Source: Antedon bifida
Lineage: Eukaryota > Echinodermata > Crinoidea > Comatulida > Antedonidae
NCBI GenBank assembly: GCA_963402885.1
Contig: OY727103.1
Span: 13,852,085-13,916,084 of the forward strand
DNA: 64,000 bases
Direction of reading: 5' to 3'
Shown here: positions 3,001 to 63,600 of the stretch, piece by piece
Position numbering within the stretch: position 1 is the first letter of the stretch
How the letters are laid out: the number at the start of each line of letters is the position of its first letter
Made by a program: the position numbers and the translations under genes
Notes under the pieces: generated by a model
Databases searched by the model: none
What the model was told of the DNA's origin: nothing
What the model saw: only the letters and a program-made list of their open reading frames with translations

Positions 3001-6000
3001 GGAAGCATACCACTAGTAAACTTCAAAGAGTCTACATACAGTATCTCACTGCTCAAATGTTTGTCATCATTAGATTTCAGTTTCTTTTTTGTGATCTTTT
3101 TTATTTTTTTTCTAGATGGTTTTAATCTCAAATTTGTTGCAGCAAGGTCAACAACACCAACGTCACTTTTAAAGCAGTTTGTATAATCTATTTTTAGATC
3201 ACCATCACCTAGACTGGTGGATGGTATTTCAAGATCACCATCACTGCCATCATTCCCTTCAATGTGACTGACATCGATCCAAGAGTTGTCTGCAGATTTC
3301 TGCTTGAAACCTTCAACAACACAAACTTTCTCACCAATGGCCGACACATAATTGTTGTTAACATTTGTTACCTTTTTTACATTTTGGTTAAAATCCTTTT
3401 TATTTTTCTGCAATTTATTTTTCTTTTTAATATGTTTATCCTTTTTGGGTTTTAAAACACTTTTTACTGTTTGTGCAATTGTTTTAACAGTTTTCTCTTT
3501 TTTCTTAGACTTCTTTTGTTTCGCTGTTTTGTTTCGAATTTTATCCGATTTACCTTGACCTAATAAAAATAATAGATTGTAATTATCTTATGAATTGTTA
3601 AGTTAAGAGAGAGGGATATTATTTTAATTTTCCTTTGAAATTCCATAAACCTACTTTTGTTACATTATTACTACAGTACCTCGAAAAGAAGTCTTTAAAA
3701 TATCTCCACATTTGAAGAAGAAGATGAGCTTCTTTTCCAGATAACTTTTTCCAGGGGGCTTTTAATAAGATGGGCTTCTTTTAGACGTTTTATGATAACC
3801 ATTCGTTTGAACTTAAGGTCATTTTTTTAGGAACGGGTGTCGATAGATCTTAGATAGAGGGAGAATTTGTATGATTATTAATTATATCATCAATTGATAC
3901 AAACCTTTCGTTGATAGATGACTACTTCCATGACTCTTAGACAGGTCATTTTTTTTAGGAATGGGTGTTCGTTTTAGATTCAATGAGTCTGCAATACTTT
4001 TTACTTTCTTTTCTTTTACCTTCTTCTCTTTTCCTTTTTTGATTAACTTGTTCTTGGTCTTATGGAGAATATTGAAAGAAAATCCATCTCTGTAAAATAC
4101 AAATTGACTTAATACTTGGCCTAGGCTAGTAGTAGGCATATTATTATTATTAAGTCCACTGCATTATTTACTTACTTGTTTACTTGTTTCCCGTACACTT
4201 TCGTCTACTGGATCGAGGCGAAGCACTCAGTGCTTAAAAGCCCCTCTTAGCAATAAAATCATATTCAATATAGGGTGAAAACTTCAGCGGGTGGTTAGAC
4301 CATGCGACGTTAAGTTTTGCTTTGAACGAGTTCACCGTAGCACATGAAACTACATCCGTAGGCAGAGCATTCCATAAGAGAATAACTCTCCTGGAGAAGG
4401 TGTCCCTCCTAATATTAAGACGAGAGCTTTTAAACTTGAGTTTATATGTGTGTCCACGGGTCCGAGATTCTAGATCAAATTCAAAAAATGTGTTGATCGA
4501 GATACGATCGAAACCCTTAACAATCCTAAAAACTTGGATAATATCCGCTCTCTGCCTTCGATATCTCATAGTAGGAAGACCAAGAATTCTCAAACGTTGT
4601 TCATAAGGGATATTTCGGTACCTAGGAATCAATCTTGTTGCTCTTTGCTGGACCTTCTCTATTTCATCCTGATCTCGTTTTCTAATAGGATTATAAACAG
4701 TGTTACAATATTCAAGCGTTGGCCTGACAATAGACTTATACAGCTTCAAAAATCCATCTTTATTCAAGAATTTAAAAGATCTATAAATCATTCCTAGTTT
4801 CTTATTAGCCCTTTTACAGATATCCGCTACATGCAAATTAAAGATTAAACTAGGATCAAAGGTAACACCCAGATCTTTCTCCTGCTTTACCTCATGTAGT
4901 AAATTACCAGCCATTGAATACAAGAACTTAAGATTATCACGACCATAATGAAATACCTTACACTTAGTGTCATTAAATGGCAATTGCCAAACATTAGACC
5001 AATGGGAAGCACTGTCAATGTCTCTCTGAAATAAATCCGCATCATCAATGTTATTGACCACTCTATACAACTTAGTGTCGTCTGCAAATAAACGTATACT
5101 AGATTCGACAACATCAGGTAAATCGTTAATGAAGATTGAAAATAAGATTGGGCCCACAACGCTACCCTGTGGAATTCCACTTAATACTGGAGCCTGTGAT
5201 GATAATTGACCATTGACACTAACTCGTTGCGTTCTATTTGACAAATAATTAGAGAACCAACCTAGTAGATTTCCCGTAATACCAAAACCTTTCAATTTGA
5301 CTAGAAGCCTTTGGTGTGGCACACTATCAAAAGCCTTTTTATAGTCTAAATAGACACAATCAAAGCTATCATGGTTATCCAGGTTAGTAGTCCAACTCTC
5401 CAGGACATCAAGTAGTTGTAATGCACATGATCTACCTTGTCTGAATCCAAATTGTTCGTTGCACAAAAGACCATTACTCTCAAGATACATTACAAGTTTA
5501 TCCCTAATAATCCTTTCCATCATTTTCCCTATGACCGACGTTAAACTAACCGGTCTATAGTTAGCCGGGTCCTCCTTTTTGCCTTTTTTGAATATAGGTA
5601 TTACAATTGCCTCCTTCCACGATAGAGGGACCTTCTGATCATTGAATAATCTAGTGAATATTAGACTGAGAGGGTAAGCAATTTGATCCTTTAATTCAAT
5701 CAAAACCCGTGGGTGAAAGCCATCAGGGCCAGCTGACTTATCTATAACTAAGTTAGACAACAGCTTGTGAATATCTTCTACACTAAACTCAATATCTGAC
5801 AAAGAAGCCTCAATCTTTTTATCCAGATTTGGAACATTCGATAAGTTCTCCTTACAAAAGACACTGCTAAAAAAAGAATTAAAAGACTCGGCTTTCTCTT
5901 GGTCATCTACAACAAGTTTACCCTCAAAATTTCTAAGAGTTGGAATACCAGTTCTGGTTTTTAACTGAGAATTTACATAGCGCCAGAAAGACTTTTCATT

Positions 6001-6540
6001 GACTTTAACCTCATTTGCAATCTTATTTTCAAGGATGCTTTTAGAACTCTTAATCAAGTTGACAGTATCATTCCTTACTCTAATAAACGTGTTCCATTTG
6101 ACACTAGCACTTTCATGCCCTTTACGCTTTGCTTTGATATACTGTTTCCAGCATTTATTCTTCTGTTTAATAGACTTATCAACCTCCTTAGTAAACCACA
6201 AATTATTATGTGGAATGTAGTATTTCTTTTTTATCAAGTAGGCCTGGCTGGGAGTAGCCAATGTTAGGCCTAGTAGATCTACCTACTACTATAGGCTACT
6301 TCTATCATAGATCACCTAGGAGGCTAGACTAGTAGGCCTACTACTATTAGGCCTATGTCTTGGGCTCGTGGTGGCAGCCAGGCAGAGTACATCAGCCAGG
6401 CTGCCACCGATTCGCGATAGGATAGGCTACCGCATCGTGGATAACGAGGGCCGCCCTATACGCCATAAATTTATTTATTCATGTGTAAACTGAAGAAACT
6501 AATGACAATATTATATTATTTACCGTGTTTTAGATGACAT
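52..6540 (-). CDS. NOL9: NOL9-like polynucleotide 5'-hydroxyl-kinase (3' end outside window)
   Basis: The NOL9/Grc3 family phosphorylates RNA 5'-OH ends during ITS2 removal from pre-rRNA in the nucleolus. Coding exons in transcript order: 6524-6540, 3905-4089, 2794-3559, 2144-2555, 1703-1920, 1458-1589, 1196-1332, 694-1051, 375-606, 52-124, continuing off the left edge. All junctions are GT-AG and every phase matches, giving about 843 residues here. The P-loop is CGKKNVGKST (about residues 512-521). It is followed by family blocks YLECDIGQTEF, PIVGPPFTH and VINTMGWIQ, then MLLIDTIRL and, near the edge, VPVCESFGVG. The N-terminal third (exons 2-3) is Lys-rich and low complexity, consistent with nucleolar targeting. 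Exon 694-1051 carries an acidic Ser/Glu insertion. The 17-nt first exon (MSSKTR) is inferred: its phase fits exon 2 exactly. An alternative start is the in-frame ATG at 4137-4139. Family assignment is firm; the extreme N-terminus is less so. Confidence 0.93.
2590..2723. mobile_element. MITE family A copy (NOL9 intron)
   Basis: Contains the family core (gtgatgtgccc, caaatatggtagtgatatgac, a central tcatcatgt, then atatgggcacatcacat) and a right end gatagtgtagagctt. The left terminal repeat is eroded and a TA microsatellite interrupts the core. It is related to the copies at 23490, 24559, 30598 and 41035. Confidence 0.7.
4138..6236 (-). mobile_element. 5'-truncated CR1/L2/jockey-type non-LTR retrotransposon in NOL9 intron 1
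   Basis: The insertion lies on the NOL9 coding strand, inside its first intron. The 3' end is a short run of TAA repeats (minus strand, about 4138-4152), as in CR1/L2 elements that end in microsatellites rather than poly(A). The heptamer AGTAGGC occurs just outside both ends (4131-4137 and 6237-6243) and is the likely target-site duplication, though similar words are common nearby. The endonuclease half of the polyprotein is absent, so this is a typical 5' truncation. The remaining RT and C-terminal region is open throughout, which suggests a fairly young copy. Confidence 0.85.
4234..6261 (-). CDS. Reverse transcriptase ORF of the non-LTR element (N-terminally truncated)
   Basis: The open frame has 675 codons with no stops or frameshifts and ends KRGF-TAA. 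RT-family motifs are in order: SAGPDGFHP, then PIFKKG with NYRPVSL, then EQFGFR, then DYKKAFD, then GIPQGSVVGP, and the catalytic box FADDTKLY (F392-A-D-D395). Downstream lies the usual C-terminal region, with WNALPTDVV and FKAKLN near the end. The apurinic-type endonuclease that normally precedes the RT is missing. The putative ATG and the first eight or so codons lie outside the inferred element boundary (6236), in host intron sequence, so the start is accidental and the ORF is probably not translated as drawn. The function would be target-primed reverse transcription of the element's own RNA. Confidence 0.9.
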   Translation of the reverse strand: MATPSQAYLIKKKYYIPHNNLWFTKEVDKSIKQKNKCWKQYIKAKRKGHESASVKWNTFIRVRNDTVNLIKSSKSILENKIANEVKVNEKSFWRYVNSQLKTRTGIPTLRNFEGKLVVDDQEKAESFNSFFSSVFCKENLSNVPNLDKKIEASLSDIEFSVEDIHKLLSNLVIDKSAGPDGFHPRVLIELKDQIAYPLSLIFTRLFNDQKVPLSWKEAIVIPIFKKGKKEDPANYRPVSLTSVIGKMMERIIRDKLVMYLESNGLLCNEQFGFRQGRSCALQLLDVLESWTTNLDNHDSFDCVYLDYKKAFDSVPHQRLLVKLKGFGITGNLLGWFSNYLSNRTQRVSVNGQLSSQAPVLSGIPQGSVVGPILFSIFINDLPDVVESSIRLFADDTKLYRVVNNIDDADLFQRDIDSASHWSNVWQLPFNDTKCKVFHYGRDNLKFLYSMAGNLLHEVKQEKDLGVTFDPSLIFNLHVADICKRANKKLGMIYRSFKFLNKDGFLKLYKSIVRPTLEYCNTVYNPIRKRDQDEIEKVQQRATRLIPRYRNIPYEQRLRILGLPTMRYRRQRADIIQVFRIVKGFDRISINTFFEFDLESRTRGHTYKLKFKSSRLNIRRDTFSRRVILLWNALPTDVVSCATVNSFKAKLNVAWSNHPLKFSPYIEYDFIAKRGF

Positions 6541-16700: not shown

Positions 16701-19700
16701 AAAACAAACTTACATGCTAGTATAAGAAAACCAATTATAATGAAGATAAATAATATTTTATATAGGTTTTTGGAGAGGGTAAAGATGCAATATGTTTCAA
16801 ACAGAGATATATTTTGGAGGAGTGTAAGTTAAGTTATATCAAGCAAACCAGAAAAACCTTTTGTGTAGGTTTGGTGAAGAAGGAAAATCTAATTAGGTAA
16901 AAATGAGAATGCAAAAAGGAGTGGTGTATATATTAAAAAAGGTGCTCGACACCACACATGCAAACAGGCGAAAAGGATCTATTAACTAAAGGTCATTTCA
17001 ACCAATCAGATTAAACCATTGAAAGGTCTCACCTTCTCGTAACACCGAGGCATTGTTCTCACGTCCAACGTCAAATTCTTATAAAACACATATAAAGCAT
17101 TTTGTTTTCAATTAATGAGTTAGATCTTATTAATAATTATTTATAGAACTCATGCATAATATATTTATTATTATTTATTGCAACAAAATTACATACAAAA
17201 AATACAACAAAAACTAAGGGAGTAGACAGGAACCTAAAGTGAACCCGTCTTATTGACATCATTTAGGAAAATGTTAACTTTAAAGTTAAAGTTTTGTTAG
17301 AGAAAATTAATGAAGCAAAAGTAAGTTGTATCATTATGCCAGGGAGATTTGACAAAAGTATATCTGTATATGCATACATAATTTGCATACATAATTTGCA
17401 TACATATTCTGTATAACAAGCATTTTACTTCATCACCTCAGTCACATGACCATTGTGACATCAGACAATACAGTTGTTGTTAAATGAACGAAAGCTTTAA
17501 TAAAAAAAAGTGTTGAAATGCTTACCACTGTATAGTTTATCTGTATCCGGTATATGATTATCATCAAAGTACTTTTCAGTTGACTCAAGGATGTAAAAAC
17601 CAAATGGTTCGACAAGAACTATGGCAAAACTGTAACATAATTTAAATAGTTTTTATATAACAAATCTCATACCATTTTACATAGAAGATATTCTGTACAA
17701 TGTTTAGATAGAAGATATTCCATATAATGTTTAGATGGAAGATTTTCCATACAATTTTTAGATGGAAGATTTTCCATAAAATGTTTAGATGGAAGATTTT
17801 CCATACAATGTTTAGATGGAAGACATTCTATACAATGTTTAGATGGAAGGTATTCTGTATACTTTTTTAATGTCAATAAGACGTACTTACCTAAAAGGTG
17901 TTTCATCAAGAAAGGTGTAGAAGTAGGAATTATTTCTCACTGATATACGGGTCTGTTAAAACAATTGTATAGTAATATTAACTTTTATTTATTAGTCCAA
18001 AGAATATCATCATCATGTATATCATCATCATCATGTATATCAACATCATCATCAACATCTTCATCATGTATATCATCATGTATATCATCATCATCATCAT
18101 CATCATGTATATCAACATCATCATTATCATTATCATGTATATCATCATCATCATCATCATCATCATGTATATCAACATCATCATTATCATTATCATGTAT
18201 ATCATCATCATCATGTATATCAACATCATTATTATCATTATCATGTATATCATCATCATCATCATGTATATCAACATCATCATCAACATCTTCATCATGT
18301 ATATCATCATGTATATCATCATCATCATCATCATGTATATCAACATCATCATTATCATTATCATGTATATCATCATCATCATCATCATGTATATCAACAT
18401 CATCATTATCATTATCATGTATATCATCATCATCATGTATATCAACATCATTATTATCATTATCATGTATATCATCATCATCATCATGTATATCAACATC
18501 ATCATCAACATCTTCATCATGTATATCATCATCATCATGTATATCAACATCATCATTATTATTATCATGTATATCATCATCATCAACATCATCATCATGT
18601 ATATCATCTTCATAAACATCATCATGTATATCATCATCATCATGTATATCATCATCAGGAAAGTACAAAAGCAGCAGAAGCCACTGTCACAAAATAGGTG
18701 TGTAGGCCTACTTTCTCAATAGATGTGTATAGTCAAATTCATCTGGAAAAAAGCTGGGTTACTCAAGACAGATATAGGAGCAGTGCCATCCGACACTTAA
18801 GTATCCTAGCTGGGGGAGAGGAGGTGTCATGAAAAAATGTTGAAAACTTACCAAATTGGATGTATGCATTACAGATTCTATTTTCGTTTCACCCGTCAAT
18901 GTGTTAATCATTGCATTTCGCATCTTTAAAACAAATAAAACATAACTTAACAACTGCGTTTTGTAAGAATTTTTGAATACCAACCATTATTGGGAGGTCC
19001 AAAAAGTTCAGATTTCCAGAAAGTTTGAATTCTGAAATGCATTTCCCATTATTCAGGTAGTTCTGTTTTGAGGACAGCCGTTACAAAGGATTGATAACAA
19101 CAGCAGCATTACCATAGTTGTTCTTACTGAGATGCTATTAAGTGAACATTGAATGAAGCTGAATTGTATCACACACATTCTTATGATCTTAAATATTCAT
19201 TTTATATTATATATTTATTTATGTTCAGTCGGTAGGATTACCCTCTATAAATACAGTAGAAATAAGTACTGATTTTAATAATTAACTTTTCAGACTGCTT
19301 AATTACAAGTACTGAAAGTTTAGATTATTATGAAACAAAACAACTTACAGTAGTAACAATGTTACTCCCAAGGTCATTTGTGATTATTAATTGTTAATAT
19401 TCATAGCAGAATACATACATGAAACAAATTACATTATCGTTTTATTTAATCAAAATTGTATTATAACTTTTCCCAAGATAACTAATAATTTCTTATCACA
19501 AACGATAGAAATTCTAGCAACCTATTCACATGAACGTGTGACTTGCATGTAAAGAAATAAAGTCATCCATACAGAACTGCTAAATTCTTCAACACTAGAC
19601 ATCTAATAGAATTTATTAAAATAATTATCCCTTTGGGAAACAGACGGTTACTCAAAATATGCATATGTGCAAAACTTTTCATACTGTTTAAATGATAAAC

Positions 19701-55404: not shown

Positions 55405-58400
55405 TTAATCATCATCTTCGTCATCTGAATCATTCTTCTTTGAGAATCCGTTGTAGACAATTTTGCCTTCGCCTTGCATGACGGACGCAGTCGCTTCTTC
55501 AACCTGCAAACGTTGCTTGATTGTCTCGTACGTTCGACTATTCAGTATCTTCTCTGCCACGCAATGGAGTTCCATGTCCGTGTACATTTTCTGATAAAAT
55601 AAAAATGAAATGGACGCATAACGTAAACATTTAAAGCGGTCAGGAAGCTAGCTAGGCCTAAAGATAACACAAACTAAAAAACTAAAGTTATAAACTAATA
55701 CAGAGATCCTAAAACAGAAATGTCAAATATGACAAAGCAAGTGATAATTACTTTAAGCCTAGCCTAAGTAAATGACAGACAAATTGAGTCACATCTCTGA
55801 GAAAATCGCTGAGACATATGAATGACTACATGTAACATACGGTAAGATTCAAATTTGTTTACGGAAAATAATTTGACCAAGTTCACCCTCAATGAACCGA
55901 ATTATGAAACTTACTTATATTAATAAAAACTATGCTGGGCTGTGGCAAGCAACTAGTGGCAGCTTGCTCGTTGAACTTTGAACTCTACCTCGCGTTGATA
56001 CGGTTCATTGAAGGATAATATAAGATGCGAGTCGGATACATATATCACTAATAACAACATAGGGTATAAATACATATCCTATTGTGCGAGTACATCAAAC
56101 AGCTCAATTGTTTATTCTACTGTATAAATAATGATTTTCTTTAATTTTCCAACACAATTTCTCGTCTAAGCTTATCTGTGCAGTTGGCTAGGCACAACGT
56201 ATAATGGTTGAATGTGACTCAACTAATGTTGTTATTTATCTTGTTTCAATTGTACATCCAACAGCCATTTGCCAATTACAGGATGTCTTAAACAATAACA
56301 TTTCAAAATTCATACAGTTACAGTAAAAAATGATTATGTCAATAGTTATACTGTTTTTAACAGTATAGATTTGCTTCAATTCTTTGAGAATTTGACTCAC
56401 CTCCTTTCAACGTTACAAGGATGTGTCGAGGACGGAAGCGGAATAACGTAAGGAGGAGAGTTGGGTGGGTAAGCGGTAAAGGATGAGGAAGGCTAGAGAA
56501 GAGACATGGCACAAGAGACAAGTTTAATCTATAAAAAAAAAACCTTAGTGATCCTGAGGAGTGTGTTGAGTTGATAGATGTGTAGTTGTATTTCCATTCT
56601 ATCCGATAGCCAATCACAAAGCAGATTCATATTTGAGGTGTACCAAGCTTCGTAGAGACACAGTAAGAATTGATCATCATGAGTTCTAGCTGTGATGTCT
56701 TCCAGGTTGTCGCAGATAAATTCTGCATATGCATCTGCGAGTTCCATTCCTGGATTCTGAAAAATATTATACTTGATAATAATGTATGATTTTCCTACAA
56801 CCAAATTTGGGGGTGGAGTTCTATTACAGAGTGGTTTATTATAGGTATGTTGCTATAAAAATAAATAGAAATAAACATATCAACAACTACTAATCTCTAT
56901 TGAGTTCATAGCTAATTTTATTTCTAGGGGTTTACATAGTGCACATTAAAGAACTTGGTACACAATTCACAAAGAGTAAGGATCGTCTCCCGGTGTGCTG
57001 ATCTGGCTTCTATGGGTCCGTAGAGGGCCTAATCCGAAAAAAAGCTTGAGGACAAATATAAATACAAAAAAAACTTACCGTGAAGGATAGAATCGAAGCA
57101 AAGAATGTGCCTTCATCATACCGTGCTAACTTGTCTAGGACGTTTCGTAGCACTTGTGTAAGTTTCGTTACAAGTTCATTCACCATCTTTTTGTTCTCCC
57201 CTTGGATTACAGATTCAATCTGAGTGTGGTACTGATACTAAGAAAAAACATATACACATACAAATAAAACAAAGAATCATTAACTTTACGACGTATGCGA
57301 TCAGGATGACAATAAATGTCATTTTCACAAAATTAACACCCCTAGAAATGAATGGAACAGTCAGTTACAAGAAATACATTTACATTGGGATTTGTTGGTA
57401 AATGGCCAGAATACCAGAATATGTTAACACTTATGTGTTTCATAATGTTATTCCACTTCCAAGTACAAAACAAAGTGTGATGTGGCCAAATGCGGTAGTA
57501 ATATGACATCATCATGTCCATATTAGATAGATGGTTTACTGATGGTTAAAGATATATTGTCCCCCTAAAAAAATATTTTTTTAAATTTTTTTGTTGAATA
57601 TGTCATTTTAATGTCACATAATAGTTATTCACTCTCACAAAAAATTTGGTCTGAAAAAAATTTATTTACCTGAGAAAAATGTAATTTAAAGCAAAAAATG
57701 GTCAAACTGTCTGGAAGACAATGAGTTTTTGGGTAATTTAACTGTTTATTTTGTCTTTTTATAGGTGAAATAATTTTTTTTCCCCGTTTTTTTTCTTATG
57801 GAAGTGAACAACTTCATTAAAACTGCAAAATGGCCTATTCAAAGTCTGATTTTAAAAATCTTTATTTTTCATGATTTTGGGGGACAATACATCTTTAAAT
57901 AAAAACGACTACTTACGGTTTCTTGATCCCTATTGGGTGGACAGAGTTTGAGAGATTGGTTTCTTGCATCATTTAAGACATTGAACATAACGCAGATCTC
58001 TGATGGTACTCTGTAGTCAGTCGTTGTGCGACCTTTTTTAATCCAACACTCAAAAGCCTTCATGGTCCTTAAAGAAATACAATAAAACTAATTTAATTTT
58101 TATCAACAGATCGCTTAATTGGTACCTATATACCTGTTTCAGTACCCATTAGCAGACAGTATTGATGTCAGTTAGCCTAAGTTTATAACCAGGATTATAT
58201 AATACAGAGTATCTACCAGGGATGTAGCTAAAGAAGTCTAGGGGTTAAACAAGTTAGGCATGGGTTGTAAAAGTACTTTCAGGGTTCTTGGGTGGGTGCT
58301 AGGCTGAAATTAGGTCATAAAATCATTTTTAGGATGGCATTAATGTTCCACTGTACCTGTTTACACAGGATTCAACCATGTCGGCTGCCATCTGCTTGAG

Positions 58401-60632
58401 CCTGTGATCCAAGTGTCGAGCAAATTCCTCATCTGGCCAATGAAGCTCTCGAATGAATGACTGAAGGGCGTCCAACTTCCAAAATATCTCTTCTGATGTT
58501 GGAGTGCCATTCCTGTTAGCAGAAAAATTTTCAATTTCATTGATAGTTTTATTCCAAATGAGAGAAAATGGAATGATGGGATAAACCACCACCAGGAAAA
58601 ATAAAGAAATAATAAAATAGGGAAATAATAAAGACAGAGATTCGAACTCGGAACAGTCTGCTTGACATGCAGTTGTTCTAACCATTAGACCACTCAGGTT
58701 TCTATGGTATTGTTCAAATTTGATTGGATAGCTACTCTTTAACACTCTCGTAAATATGATTGTGACATTGGCAAATTAGGCTACCACAAGGTATTTTGTC
58801 TCTATCTTTTTCACAATTATTTTTTCGAGAAATAAATAAATGAAATGAAGATATGATTGCTTACCCTTCAGGCTGCCAACGTTCCTTTTCAAAGCCCTTG
58901 TGTATTGACTGGGCAATCGATGACTCCATCAGGTCCACGTACCGAATCACTTGTGATGCAAATGTATCGCGTAAGTGCTGGTGGAATCGACCGCCATTCA
59001 AATTAGCTGGGGAAAAAACCAATTCAAATCTTCATGCTTATTGTAATACAAACCATTATATAATTATTCTGCAAACTTTAGACACGTTTTGAAACTCCTA
59101 TCAGTGGGTTGATCCAGAATTTTAAAATAGGGCCAAGGGGGGTTGCCTGTAGGGCTGAGTGGGGTGCCTACTGTAGGGCCGAGGGGCGTGCCTACTCGGC
59201 CGTTCCAAGGCAAAACCACGTAACTCGCATTTTGGTCAATTTTGAGATTTTTTCATTTGGGGAATTATTACAAATTTATGAACAACCTGTAAAAATTTCA
59301 GGTTTCAGAGATCATTATTTTTAGAGATAGTACCACGTATCTTTAAGCAAAAAACAAATAATTCTAGTATTTTCCAAGGCAAAACAACGTATCTACCAGA
59401 TACGTTGTTCTGCCACGGAAATGCATACGATTTTCGCTTCAAATTCTCACAATCAGCTAAGTTACGTAATTTTTAGACAGAAACCGCTGATGCATGACAA
59501 TATGCATAGCAACGACCTCAACTAAAAGTAAAAGATATATTAAACAATACTAGGCTTATTAGGCTAGACAACTAATTTAATGTATTAAAATTTATTCTAA
59601 GAATTAACTATATTTACGAAAAAGTTCAGGCAAGCTTGAAACTAGGCTATTATTTTTGACAGACCTACCTAATCTAGCCTAGGCCTAGTATCCCAGTACT
59701 GTCAATGGAACTAGGCTAGGCCTAGGCTAGTAGGACGGCCGTTTTTGCATTGTTGTACGTGGGCCTTGTAGTAGCAGGTTAGTACCGTAGGTAGGCTATA
59801 ACATAATAATGTAAGTCTATATCATAAATAGTAGATCAAAATGGCTAAGCCTAGCTTCAAATGCACTCTTTGTTAAGCCAACCTAGTTGGTAGGCATTAT
59901 TAGTGATTGCAGCCCTCCCTGTTGTTCAAAAAGAGTTTCAATCCATTGTTTTTAAAATCATCACAGTTACGTTGTTTTGCCATGGAATGACCACAGTTAC
60001 GTTGTTTTGCCACAGGATATCGCAGTTACGTTGTTTTGCCTAAGAAATGACTTTCATTCTATACACGTCATTTCCAAGGCAAAACAACGTATCTGTTAAA
60101 AGTGGTAATAACTTTTGATAAAATTGTTTAAATTATTCAACATTTCGTATTTATTAATAATTATTATTTATATATACTCATGCAAAATTTCACATCATTA
60201 CGATAATTTGTTGCTGAAATGCAAACACTAAAACTTCAATTCAATTTTTCTCGAAAAGCAACATTTTGTAGTTACGTTGTTTTGCCTTGGAACGACCGTA
60301 CTGTAGGGCCTAAAAATTGCAAAATAAATTTCTATTTTGTGACTATGCATACTGTATTATAATAATTTGTTTAATAGGAAATAGTATTTCAATACTTTGT
60401 TTGCAAGAGTATATTGTTTAAATAACATTCGTCCCTTCCCACAAACATAAAGTGTGAAAAATGTTTAATATTTACGATCACTTCTTATATAGTCGTTGAG
60501 TAGCTGGAAGAGAGGGAAACTGTCCCAAGTGTCTTGTGGCTGAGCCTCTAACGCTGCGTCCATGTCCACTGCATACAGTGACCAAAACAACTCAGCATGT
60601 TCGATAAGCAGGTCGCTAAACCAGGCAAATGC
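55405..60632 (-). CDS. CADPS: CADPS (CAPS) calcium-dependent secretion activator, C-terminal exons (5' part outside window)
   Basis: CAPS primes dense-core vesicles for Ca2+-triggered exocytosis through its MUN/MHD region, acting on SNAREs. Seven coding exons: 60476-60632, 58865-59006, 58357-58512, 57917-58067, 57079-57237, 56544-56756, 55405-55590. They are phase-consistent and give 387 residues plus a TAA stop. Family blocks in order: [20 protein letters not shown] and [82 protein letters not shown] with IQLHIYQL; and the hallmark tail [19 protein letters not shown], then an acidic end DSDDEDDD. The donor of exon 56544-56756 is a weak GT followed by a T-run. The join between 57079 and 56756 gives SFT-NPGM, shorter than I recall for vertebrate CAPS, so a small exon could be missed. 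C2, PH and early MUN exons must lie beyond 64000. Confidence 0.95.
56935..57040 (+). mobile_element. SINE family S1, 3' fragment
   Basis: gtgcacattaaagaacttgg, a diverged middle and cccggtgtgctgatctggc match the body and tail of the SINE at 11371. It lies in the CADPS intron just 5' (transcript-wise) of exon 56544-56756. Confidence 0.5.
57471..57530. mobile_element. MITE family A fragment
   Basis: caaagtgtgatgtggccaaa, then tagtaatatgacatcatcat and gtccatat match the left and central parts of family A; the right half is missing. CADPS intron. Confidence 0.6.
57546..57898. mobile_element. MITE family B copy 2 (353 bp)
   Basis: Left end ttaaagatatattgtccccc; right end gggggacaatacatctttaa. 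The interior shares atagttattcactc and aaaatttggtctgaaaa with copy 1 at 41759. The right end stops 19 bp before the donor of CADPS exon 57917-58067. Confidence 0.85.
58545..58706 (-). mobile_element. tRNA-Asp-like SINE next to a CADPS splice acceptor
   Basis: The minus strand carries a tRNA-like head (about 58634-58706): A-box TGGTCTAATGGTTAGA, an anticodon-like loop ATGTCAA between CTGC and GCAG (GTC), and B-box GAGTTCGAATCTC. The acceptor arm does not pair and the D and T stems have mismatches, so this is not a working tRNA. The T/pyrimidine-rich tail runs toward the acceptor of exon 58357-58512. Confidence 0.55.
59197..60298. mobile_element. 1102-bp TIR DNA element with reiterated internal motif (CADPS intron)
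   Basis: The 29-bp terminal inverted repeats begin CGGCCGTTCCAAGG (left) and CGGTCGTTCCAAGG (right, reverse-complemented) and differ at two positions. TACT directly abuts both ends (59193-59196 and 60299-60302). A core CCAAGGCAAAACAACGTA-like motif recurs inside at 59374, 59401, 59968, 59998, 60027 and 60074, in both orientations, besides the two termini. There is no long ORF, so it is non-autonomous. I do not recognise the superfamily. Confidence 0.85.
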
Positions 60633-63600
60633 CTACATATAAAAACAATTACATATTTATAACATAATGATAATCATTCATTTCTTTTATTTCGGATAGT
60701 ACATCCATATAGCAAAACATACAAAACAAAGAAAAACTTCAACCAGATAATTAACAAGAACATCTTCCACAATCACAACCTAAAATATTAATTTGCATCA
60801 ATGCTGATGAAAGTTACTTTATTATACTTTTATACTATTATTTAATTACGGTTACAATTATTTATTTATAAAATCTCCCAAGCTATTGGTATACCATAGA
60901 TGAGCAGAAAAGAGAGTTATGGAGTGAACTTGGTTTTCACCTTAAATTGGCTAGAACTTTATGATGAAATTTATATTCACCTCAATTGTGTTTTTCAACA
61001 ACATCATAGGGATTTTTCTACAATTACACTACATACACTTATAGAATAAATGTTGAAACAACTTGATTTTAAGCATTTAAAAAGTACAATACAATATGTA
61101 TAACTTGTCAACAATTATTTGTGAAGTGAAAACAAATTGTTAAAAGAGCCTCAAGATGTTAAGAATATTTTATATAATAACAATTTATACTAGAGCGTTA
61201 AAATAATCAAAATATGTATAGTTTTCACAACAAATTACTGTAATTACAATATTCAACTGAATTCCACAAACAAATGCAATAATTCAGCATTGTTACTTGG
61301 CTATTATTAGAATGTCATTGTACAAAAACAGCTGCTGTGCTAAAACAACAGACACATCTGTGACAATCTATTTTAGTACTGGCGGCACTGTGACATACAC
61401 CCATTTTGGTAGCCACTGTGTACAGTATATGCATCCAACTTGTGAGCATTATGGATGTGTGTAGTGAATAGTGTGTGTAGCACTAGATACACAAAATATA
61501 ATTGCAAAAGTGTAAAAATACTGTAAACACCTATTTTTAATTTTAAATTTATGCAATTTTGGAAATGAAAATACTTTGCATTCGTTAAGTGAGGACCTTG
61601 AAAATGGAAGACACATAAAATTAAATGAATTTTTTTTTATAGCTTGCTAGTTTTTTTGCTTACGTGATAAAAAAATTATTCGGAAAGTAAAATATAAATA
61701 AAATCTATTATCTTTTTAATTATTATTATATAAGGGGTGAATGCATAATTTCTGAATATATTATTATATATATATTATACCTATAAAAAATATTGAATAC
61801 AATACACAAAATAGTATCCCTATTTTAAGTCTAAAAAGGGCCAATCTGGGAAAAAATTAGAAACAAGTGTTTCTCAACTGATTTGAGTTATATAGGTTCT
61901 ATATATCCACCAAAAAAAAGTTCCAGCTCATTTGGCCTGGGGAAAGCCGCCATTTTGGATTTTTAAAATGGCCGCCATAAAATACATATTTTTGCTCATA
62001 TATCAGCTTCCACATCATGTATGGATATGATTTTGGTGGCAAAGTATATGTTTTGAGGGTCAATGAATCCAAATACAGCATTTTGAAGTTTACTGAATGT
62101 CCGCCATCTTGTTTTTCAAAATGGCCGCCATAAAATACAGATTTGTACTCATCTCAACTTCTACATCGTGTATGAACGTGATTTTAGTGACAAAGTGTAG
62201 TTGTGAGTGTCAAGAAATCGAAAAACAGCATTTTCGTAATTCACTCAATGGCCGCCATTTTGTTTTTCAAAATGGCCACCATAAAAATACAGATTTTTGC
62301 TCTTATCTCAGCTTCCACATAATGTATGGAAGTGATTTTGGTGGCAATGTATATATTTTGAGGGTCAAGGATTTCAATTACAGCATTTTTTTTAAGTTTA
62401 CTTAATGGCCACCATTTTGTTTTTCAAAATGGCCGCCATAAAATACAGGTTTTGCTAATTTCGTAGCTCATATACATAATGAAGACATGATTTTGATAAC
62501 TAAGTCTATGTTTTGATTGTTACAGAATAAAAAATCAGCATTCTAAAATACAGAGTCGGAAAGTGATCAGATCTTCTTATTCCATTTAGGACCAAACTTC
62601 ATAGTTGAAGGCTACTGCTCCACTGGCTTTAGATGTTGCTTTTTTTTGCATACAGTTTGTTAAATACAGTAATAGTTTTAAAATTCCCAATCAAACTGGC
62701 ACAACATATAATAATAACAACATTTATGTACAATCCCCTTTGTCTAGTCTCCAAGATCTATCGCTATCACAATCCTCATTATTACTATGTCAACGTCGTG
62801 AGTTAATCACAAGATCGAGTTTCATACTGATTAATACCAAAGAGGTACACAAGAAGATACCAGAGAGTGTACTGTAACTATCATTCGCGAGAAGAAACTA
62901 ATAAACAAGATATTCAAAAGAAGTTACATAGAGATGTAAAGATATTTTCCAAATATAAAGAGAAGCATGGTCAACTTGCAGTTAAAAGTACAACTTATGG
63001 ATAAAGCAAGTAACATATCTTATGGATACATGGTAATACACTGGGAGATCAACACTAGTCACCCTAAATGGTCTGCATTTATGTATAAATCTAGCTGCTT
63101 ATCTGCCATCCTAATAACCTTCGATCAACCATTGTGACGTAAAGTAATGCAAATAGTTAGAGAAAGAAAACTGTCATTTGTCGTCAAACAAGAGCTTTCT
63201 GGGAAAGTCAAAAAGATATCAAGAACATTTAAGCTGTGGCTGTATCATTAGATGGTATAACTTTTTAGGCATGATTGTGCAATTGGGAGCTCCAGGTTCA
63301 GATATAGCATCTACAGTATGCTTTCATATTTGCAGCAGCTGGTCATGGCCAAAATGCCAAAAGTGGAAGGCTATATCTGGAAATGCTGAAAGACAAATTT
63401 CAAGATACAGAAGGTTTTCTCTATTGTGCTCATGTCTGAAAACTGATTCTTCACCATTATAACACGTTGCATGATATCCATTCTTTTTGAACATCTTGTA
63501 TTGTATGTATATGGAAATTTGTCGTTCAGGCATATTGGCCATCATGGTCAATTGTCCTATACTGTGTCTATATCTGGAGACAAAATGGTACATCCTCATC

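What the first reader, a model, noticed from the sequence alone, without database searches (positions are those of the whole stretch)
59197..60298. Non-autonomous TIR transposon with eight copies of one motif and a reconstructable empty site
The ends are defined three ways: 29-bp TIRs, a TACT duplication at both sides, and flanking DNA. To the left is a local repeat (gtgcctactgtagggccgag). Removing the element plus one TACT restores gcctactgtagggcc across the join, which continues that repeat. The core motif (ggcaaaacaacgta) occurs at both termini and six times inside, on both strands, with one close inverted pair at 59374-59415. Dense subterminal motif copies resemble transposase-binding arrays, but here they span the whole element. 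A 4-bp TSD with CGG ends does not match the common families I know.
Basis: partly seen in the sequence, partly recalled or inferred. Interest (0 to 1): 0.75.

Follow-up and report, generated by a model that had tools for sequence, protein, structure and literature searches.

The report
Recently active non-autonomous transposon, superfamily unassigned
The stretch is one of roughly forty copies, whole or broken, of a short jumping-DNA family that encodes no protein of its own, moved recently in this animal genome, and must be moved by an enzyme whose gene we did not find; it is a clean example of an ordinary kind of element rather than something new in principle.

Summary
Of 27 fetched copies with both true ends, 26 have a perfect 4-bp target-site duplication (TSD), one 3 of 4; 24 of 25 after collapsing a segmental duplication. 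Four copies lie in a roughly 88-bp satellite whose other units are empty sites. Target preference is palindromic, aAC-ARYT-GTt. All eight motif copies are kept in 22 of 23 full-length copies; the inner ones vary less than the other interior (8% against 20% of columns). They form two clusters and do not 'span the whole element'. Copies at separate sites are up to 100% identical, so movement was recent. No autonomous partner was found: all 22 convergent pairs of the exact terminal 11-mer are copies of this element; looser ends were only partly searched. Features tested do not fit Ginger, piggyBac, MULE, P or Tc1/mariner; Sola stays open. Best reading: moved in trans by a 4-bp-stagger transposase that binds the motif array. 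New member of a known kind.

The parts
59193..59196 (.). left target-site duplication TACT
   Evidence: identical to 60299-60302; 26 of 27 two-ended copies have a perfect 4-bp duplication of varying sequence
59197..60298 (.). non-autonomous TIR transposon, 1,102 bp
   Evidence: DNA-level copies in the own genome, same boundaries in copies
59197..59225 (+). left terminal inverted repeat, CGGCCGTTCCAAGGCAAAACCACGTAACT
   Evidence: 27 of 29 paired with the right end
60270..60298 (-). right terminal inverted repeat (read on the - strand CGGTCGTTCCAAGGCAAAACAACGTAACT; nearly all other copies have CGGCCG)
60299..60302 (.). right target-site duplication TACT
59372..59394 (+). inner motif copy 1 (TTCCAAGGCAAAACAACGTATCT)
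59398..59420 (-). inner motif copy 2; with copy 1 a near-perfect inverted pair, 3-nt loop
59965..59987 (-). inner motif copy 3
59995..60017 (-). inner motif copy 4 (30 bp after copy 3)
60024..60046 (-). inner motif copy 5 (29 bp after copy 4)
60072..60094 (+). inner motif copy 6; opposite orientation to copy 5
59147..59194 (.). 24-bp host tandem repeat (2 copies, 88%) into whose next unit the element inserted; joining the flanks restores GTGCCTACTGTAGGGCC
   Evidence: D4; sequence
58320..60650 (-). three exon pieces of a CADPS (calcium-dependent secretion activator) orthologue; the element lies in the intron between the exons near 60.5-60.6 kb and 58.9-59.0 kb
   Evidence: translations; PDB 6a68_A E 6.3e-64; Pfam MUN E 2.9e-53

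Best explanation
It is a non-autonomous cut-and-paste DNA transposon (a long MITE, 1.07-1.12 kb). SHOWN: exact ends, a 29-bp TIR, a 4-bp TSD, a palindromic target preference aAC-ARYT-GTt, recent multiplication (36 left-end and 38 right-end matches in this genome), and conservation of eight copies of one 23-bp motif. INFERRED: a DDE-type transposase supplied in trans makes 4-bp staggered cuts; the motif (TTCCAAGGCAAAACAACGTAACT, the TIR without its outer CGGCCG) is its binding site; only the two outer copies next to CGGCCG are cleaved, while the six inner copies, in a left and a right cluster, raise transposase occupancy and help pair the ends, or damp activity. The element has no coding remnant that I could see, so it is moved by another element's enzyme, which was not found in this assembly.
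For: Copies and ends. TSD in 26 of 27 two-ended copies, 24 of 25 independent (the script's 28th row, L042, is a false right end at an inner motif). Empty sites for L009, L023, L027, L028 in the tandem array of L002 (the array around L009 itself), best spans 93.7, 95.3, 98.0 and 94.3% over 300-301 bp; flanks of L028, on another contig, also show the empty site of L009 at 95.0% over 200 bp. Target palindrome over 24 perfect-TSD insertions: TSD position 2 purine / position 3 pyrimidine 37 of 48, p 2e-4; C at -1 / G at +1 52%. Motif: 22 of 23 copies keep all eight, L020 keeps seven. Variable columns: inner motif 11/138, other interior 179/906, TIR 3/58; 17 of 1043 rotations and 0.6% of random block placements are as low. 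Recency: L019 and L021, with different TSDs, 1112 of 1112 identical; L027, L028, L029 99.82-99.91%; window and L009 99.64%. Exact 11-mer of the end: 73 hits (control 7), 22 convergent pairs within 30 kb, all copies of this element. No stop-to-stop frame over 80 aa overlaps the element.
Against: Nothing here shows that a transposase binds the motif. Low variability could partly come from gene conversion between repeats; the left 200 bp is low in variation outside the motifs too, and the test treats related copies as independent. Some divergent relatives have lost motif copies: L041 shows 3 of the 5 its stretch should hold, the nested C7 copy A 5 of 6, the C15 right end 1. No transposase was found, so the DDE mechanism rests on the form of TIR and TSD alone.
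Confidence: 0.88

Rival explanations
1. The partner is a MULE-type (ZSWIM/ALS2CR8-like) transposase element, and C8:19327109 is a decayed autonomous copy of it.
For: C8:19327109 starts with the exact TIR end, its first 198 bp are 88% identical to the window copy, and 1.6 kb inside it a 118-aa frame matches Pfam PF21056 ZSWIM1-3_RNaseH-like, E 8.5e-6, 26.2 bits against a cut-off of 27.2. It carries four motif copies that all read CCAyGTA, as if motif and binder changed together.
Against: The locus is a mosaic: the stretch before the MULE piece (query 1023-1633) also occurs at C8:19325882 and in part at C8:478786, both ending at the same base, 1633, where the match of C8:21065700-21066118 to the MULE piece begins (40 of 445 candidates scored). 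The other six places with the frame (eight matches) show no such end with fewer than 6 of 20 mismatches in the roughly 9.9 kb fetched around each. No right end with up to 5 of 20 mismatches within 9.6 kb. MULEs make 7-12 bp TSDs (PMC10741241, passages seen), not 4.
Confidence: 0.12
2. It is a non-autonomous member of the Sola superfamily.
For: Sola is described as having 4-bp TSDs, TIRs of 11-1124 bp and very variable termini (PMC10741241, passages); Dictyostelium Sola2 elements have AWWT TSDs (PMC3627910, passages), not far from ARYT here.
Against: No Sola transposase could be linked; I had no Sola model or protein to search with, so this was not tested at protein level.
Confidence: 0.35
3. 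It belongs to an undescribed superfamily.
For: No tested terminal/TSD rule of a named superfamily other than Sola fits (membership test), and no longer element with the same exact 11-bp ends within 30 kb was found in this assembly.
Against: Absence of a partner in one assembly is common for non-autonomous families (recalled); Repbase itself was not available to compare the 11-bp ends.
Confidence: 0.12
4. The eight motifs are an unrelated dispersed satellite or host regulatory repeat captured by the element.
For: Three copies lie 30 and 29 bp apart as in a short tandem array.
Against: The motif is the TIR itself without its outer 6 bp, absent from the rest of the window, and in 101,711 bp of other fetched loci its only hits are known ends.
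Confidence: 0.04

Closest known systems
Sola DNA transposons (Sola1/Sola2) and their non-autonomous derivatives
   Same: 4-bp TSD, TIR of variable sequence and length
   Different: no transposase linked here; terminal sequence could not be compared; membership untested
P element (Drosophila) and its internally deleted copies
   Same: about 30-bp TIR plus separate internal transposase sites and subterminal inverted repeats (PMC7776569, passages)
   Different: P makes 8-bp TSDs; here 4 bp; here the inner sites repeat the TIR sequence itself and number six
Elements with subterminal motif arrays such as piggyBac, Tol2, Ac/Ds, En/Spm (piggyBac from passages and Tol2 and Ac from the reference list of PMC11707139; the rest recalled)
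   Same: several short copies of a binding motif near both ends
   Different: hAT makes 8-bp and CACTA 3-bp TSDs (recalled); here the motif equals the inner 23 bp of the TIR
Ginger1/Ginger2
   Same: 4-bp TSD
   Different: Ginger ends follow TGTNR and the TSD is CCGG/CCGT (Ginger1) or the target RTATAY (Ginger2) (PMC2836005, passages); neither is met

Membership tests
Non-autonomous TIR DNA transposon (MITE-like) | defined TIRs at both ends, shared by copies | tested here: met
Non-autonomous TIR DNA transposon (MITE-like) | constant-length TSD and empty sites | tested here: met
   26 of 27 two-ended copies, 4 bp; empty sites for four copies
Non-autonomous TIR DNA transposon (MITE-like) | no transposase gene inside | tested here: met
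   no stop-to-stop frame over 80 aa overlaps it; the 80-aa frame runs across its left end
Non-autonomous TIR DNA transposon (MITE-like) | an autonomous element with the same ends exists | tested here: inconclusive
   22 convergent exact 11-mer pairs within 30 kb, all copies of the same 1.1-kb element; ends with mismatches only partly covered (one search lists 100 of 130 matches; the looser search did not complete)
Sola | 4-bp TSD | tested here: met
   rule from PMC10741241
Sola | Sola DDD transposase | not testable with these tools
   no partner found, no Sola model or protein at hand
Ginger1/Ginger2 | TGTNR termini; TSD CCGG/CCGT (Ginger1) or RTATAY target (Ginger2) | tested here: not met
   ends are CGGCCG; TSDs vary; rules from PMC2836005
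piggyBac / Kolobok / Sola3 (TTAA group; Kolobok and Sola3 recalled) | TTAA TSD | tested here: not met
   0 of 26 perfect TSDs are TTAA
MULE (Mutator-like) | TSD 7-12 bp | tested here: not met
   0 of 28 rows has an exact duplication of 5, 6, 7, 8 or 9 bp (10-12 not tested); rule from PMC10741241
MULE (Mutator-like) | MULE transposase between the TIRs | tested here: inconclusive
   one mosaic locus, C8:19327109
P superfamily | 7-8 bp TSD | tested here: not met
   rule from PMC5199201 and PMC7776569 (passages)
Tc1/mariner | TA TSD | tested here: not met
   rule from PMC5199201
CMC/Chapaev | CAC-type termini (recalled) | tested here: not met
   ends CGGCCG; the rule is from memory
Academ | 3-bp TSD (PMC5199201) | tested here: not met
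   4 bp, not 3; descriptions with 3-4 bp are recalled only

The most novel reading that the evidence does not exclude
The family is the visible part of an undescribed transposase superfamily that makes 4-bp staggered cuts at AACARYTGTT-like palindromes and reads an array of TIR-identical sites. Its autonomous member is absent from this assembly although copies moved very recently. The C8 relative, whose motif copies all share another base, hints that motif and enzyme change together.
Probability: 0.12. Interest if true: 0.55.

Novelty: new member of a known kind. Interest (0 to 1): 0.33.

Why it matters
A small, clean, recently active family with exact ends, empty sites and a readable target preference is a good test bed for what inner copies of a transposon's own end sequence do, helping or damping; PMC11707139 (passages) notes that such arrays are assumed necessary in many uncharacterised systems although an inner site damps piggyBat. 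It also shows a family active very recently without a recognisable autonomous member in the assembly. It should be masked when the CADPS intron is annotated.

Tried and rejected
Nested copies of 4.6, 12.0 and 14.3 kb on C7 looked at first like an autonomous element; they are one insertion in a segmental duplication. All three carry about 1 kb of extra sequence inside the element; in that extra sequence the two longer ones hold another transposon (about 12.5 and 10.3 kb), while the 4.6-kb copy has another 2.8 kb with tandem-repeat frames. Copies at C10:13458319 and C10:9011970 hold inserts with 1,627-aa and 1,535-aa polyprotein-like frames, described only.

Orphan ends at C15:880429, C7:19143766 and C1:10680986 have, among frames of 60 aa or more left after a composition filter, none that reads as a transposase by eye within about 9.5 kb; these frames were not run against Pfam. 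Interior DNA next to the C15 end gave, among 40 of 4,406 candidates scored, only short dispersed matches, none near another known end. The C8:19327109 lead was weakened as told under rivals.

Viral contigs (IMG/VR): 0 exact matches of the inner TIR. No tRNA and no Rfam match at gathering score in the window. A first table of ends was wrong because fuzzy matching shifted the left ends by a few bases; it was redone with substitutions only, and identities were recounted on the corrected copies.

A looser end search (CGGCCGNTCCNNGGCAAAAC, 2 mismatches) did not complete, so partners with changed ends are only partly excluded. Bao et al. 2009 (Sola) is not held.

Full report
What is there. The window holds at 59197-60298 a 1,102-bp element with 29-bp inverted ends (27 of 29 paired), flanked by TACT on both sides. 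A 23-bp motif, TTCCAAGGCAAAACAACGTAACT, is the inner part of each end and recurs, with changes, six times inside: 59372-59394 (+), 59398-59420 (-), 59965-59987 (-), 59995-60017 (-), 60024-60046 (-), 60072-60094 (+). Its 14-bp core with at most 2 mismatches occurs 8 times in the element and nowhere else in the 64-kb window. Copies 1 and 2 form an inverted pair with a 3-nt loop, z-score -8.3 folded as DNA. The middle, 59421-59964, has no motif.

Surroundings. Exons of a CADPS orthologue lie on the - strand on both sides; three exon pieces joined as protein match PDB 6a68_A (calcium-dependent secretion activator 1, E 6.3e-64) and Pfam MUN (E 2.9e-53). The element lies in an intron.

Copies. A 28-bp end pattern with up to 3 mismatches gave 130 matches, 0 for the reversed control (it lists 100, many of them inner motifs).

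Ends and TSD. One search examined 36 rows. It scored 28 as two-ended; one (L042) is not, its right end being an inner motif. Of the 27 left, 26 have a perfect 4-bp TSD and one (L029) 3 of 4. Three rows (A, B, C on C7) are one insertion copied by segmental duplication, leaving 24 of 25 independent insertions. No row has an exact duplication of 2, 3, 5, 6, 7, 8 or 9 bp at that place. Eight rows lack one or both ends and were left out: L030, L032, L033, L035, L040, L041, L043, L044.

Empty sites. Flanks of 24 copies were joined with one TSD kept and compared with all fetched DNA. For L009, L023, L027 and L028 the joined flanks align across the junction to many units of a roughly 88-bp tandem array in L002, best 93.7, 95.3, 98.0 and 94.3% over 300-301 bp. 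L002 is the array around L009 itself; the other three copies are elsewhere (C15, C9 and C13), and flanks of L028 show the empty site of L009 at 95.0% over 200 bp. L010, L015 and L019 also gave junction-spanning matches, but only inside their own places (L003 and L008 are the same places as L010 and L015), so they add less. The other 17 of 24 gave none. The script ended with an error after these lines, in a second comparison that I did not repeat.

Target. Over the 24 perfect-TSD independent insertions, symmetrised, the site reads aAC-ARYT-GTt: C at -1 / G at +1 52%, A at TSD position 1 / T at position 4 27 of 48 (p 0.001), purine at position 2 / pyrimidine at position 3 37 of 48 (p 2e-4). Such a palindrome is what a dimeric enzyme with a 4-bp stagger gives (inference).

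Motif conservation. Of 23 full-length copies, 22 keep all eight motif copies (at most 2 mismatches) and L020 keeps seven. Variable columns: inner motifs 11 of 138, other interior 179 of 906, ends 3 of 58. Rotating the motif mask gives a value as low in 17 of 1043 positions, random blocks in 0.6%. Copies are related, so this is supportive, not proof; the most variable part is the motif-free middle, and the left 200 bp is quiet also outside motifs. Divergent relatives (the number expected is my reading of the stretch each covers): C10:16126 (L040, 75% identical) 6 of 6, C11:1834 (L044) 3 of 3, C10:17994 (L041) only 3 of 5, the nested C7 copy A 5 of 6, the C15 right end 1. C8:19327109 has four within its first 260 bp, with an extra unit of about 29 bp, all reading CCAyGTA where the inner copies of the window element read CAACGTA.

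Age. L019 and L021, at two places with different TSDs, are 1112 of 1112 identical; L027, L028 and L029, at three places on two contigs, 99.82-99.91%; window and L009 99.64%. The family moved recently.

Partner. Exact CGGCCGTTCCA occurs 73 times (control 7). These give 22 convergent pairs within 30 kb; 21 span 1,065-1,124 bp and one of 6,627 bp is the same element with a nested insert. Twelve hits lie on no known relative, not far above the control number. So no longer element with these exact ends within 30 kb was found; masked stretches and partners with changed ends are not excluded, because the looser search did not complete. The one lead, C8:19327109, has the end, 88% identity over 198 bp and, 1.6 kb inside, a 118-aa frame like ZSWIM1-3 RNaseH/MULE (E 8.5e-6, just under the Pfam cut-off). 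But the locus is a mosaic with its joint exactly at the start of the MULE piece; the eight further matches of the frame, at six places, show no such ends in the stretches fetched; and MULEs make longer TSDs. I give it 0.12. Two more divergent right ends, C8:11377769 (82%) and C15:880434 (77%), and divergent left ends such as C9:14430558 (86%) remain without a known other end; C8:11377769 and C9:14430558 were not read.

Comparison. TSD length and termini were held against rules seen as passages in papers: Ginger, Sola and MULE, Sola2, Academ, P, piggyBac and Tc1/mariner, P. Only Sola is left open, and for Sola the defining transposase could not be tested. Subterminal arrays of transposase sites are well known (P, piggyBac, Tol2); in piggyBat an inner site lowers activity. 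So the working is familiar; the number of TIR-identical inner copies is a detail of this family.

Verdict. Observation confirmed; interpretation supported with one correction (two clusters, not the whole element). A new member of a known kind: a recently active, non-autonomous TIR family of unassigned superfamily.

Noticed in passing
G000:C7 copies L036-L039 (14.3 and 12.0 kb): Inside extra sequence of these copies lies another transposon, about 12.5 kb (10.3 kb in the second), with about 48-bp TIRs beginning GGCGTCATGTCAAAATG and, by eye, a TAA duplication; it has a 386-aa frame with a weak DDE match (E 0.19) and a frame with a BEN-domain match below the Pfam cut-off (E 6.6e-4).
   Followed up: partly
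L032, G000:C7:36657204-36658167: A copy about 2-3 kb from the end of contig C7 (36,660,255) has telomere-like CCCTAA repeats on both sides and lacks its left 150 bp or so.
   Followed up: no
L002 / L009, G000:C9:12262423-12266530: A tandem satellite of roughly 88-bp units; L009, L023, L027 and L028 are four separate insertions of this element into such units at four places in the genome.
   Followed up: partly
G000:C8:19325882-19326528 and 19328132-19328741: Duplicated exon-like pieces that resemble the C-terminal part of a tyrosine recombinase (by eye; no Pfam match up to E 1), joined directly to a MULE piece in the second copy.
   Followed up: partly
L066, G000:C8:12037500-12047400: ALS2CR8/ZSWIM/MULE-like frames of 231 and 226 aa (the first PF21056 E 1e-17), possibly a less damaged MULE-type element or a host gene derived from one.
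   Followed up: no
window 4234-6282 (-): 682-aa reverse-transcriptase-like frame of a LINE (by eye from the translation).
   Followed up: no
window 17944-18722: Open frames on both strands over a simple trinucleotide-type repeat; not genes (by eye).
   Followed up: no
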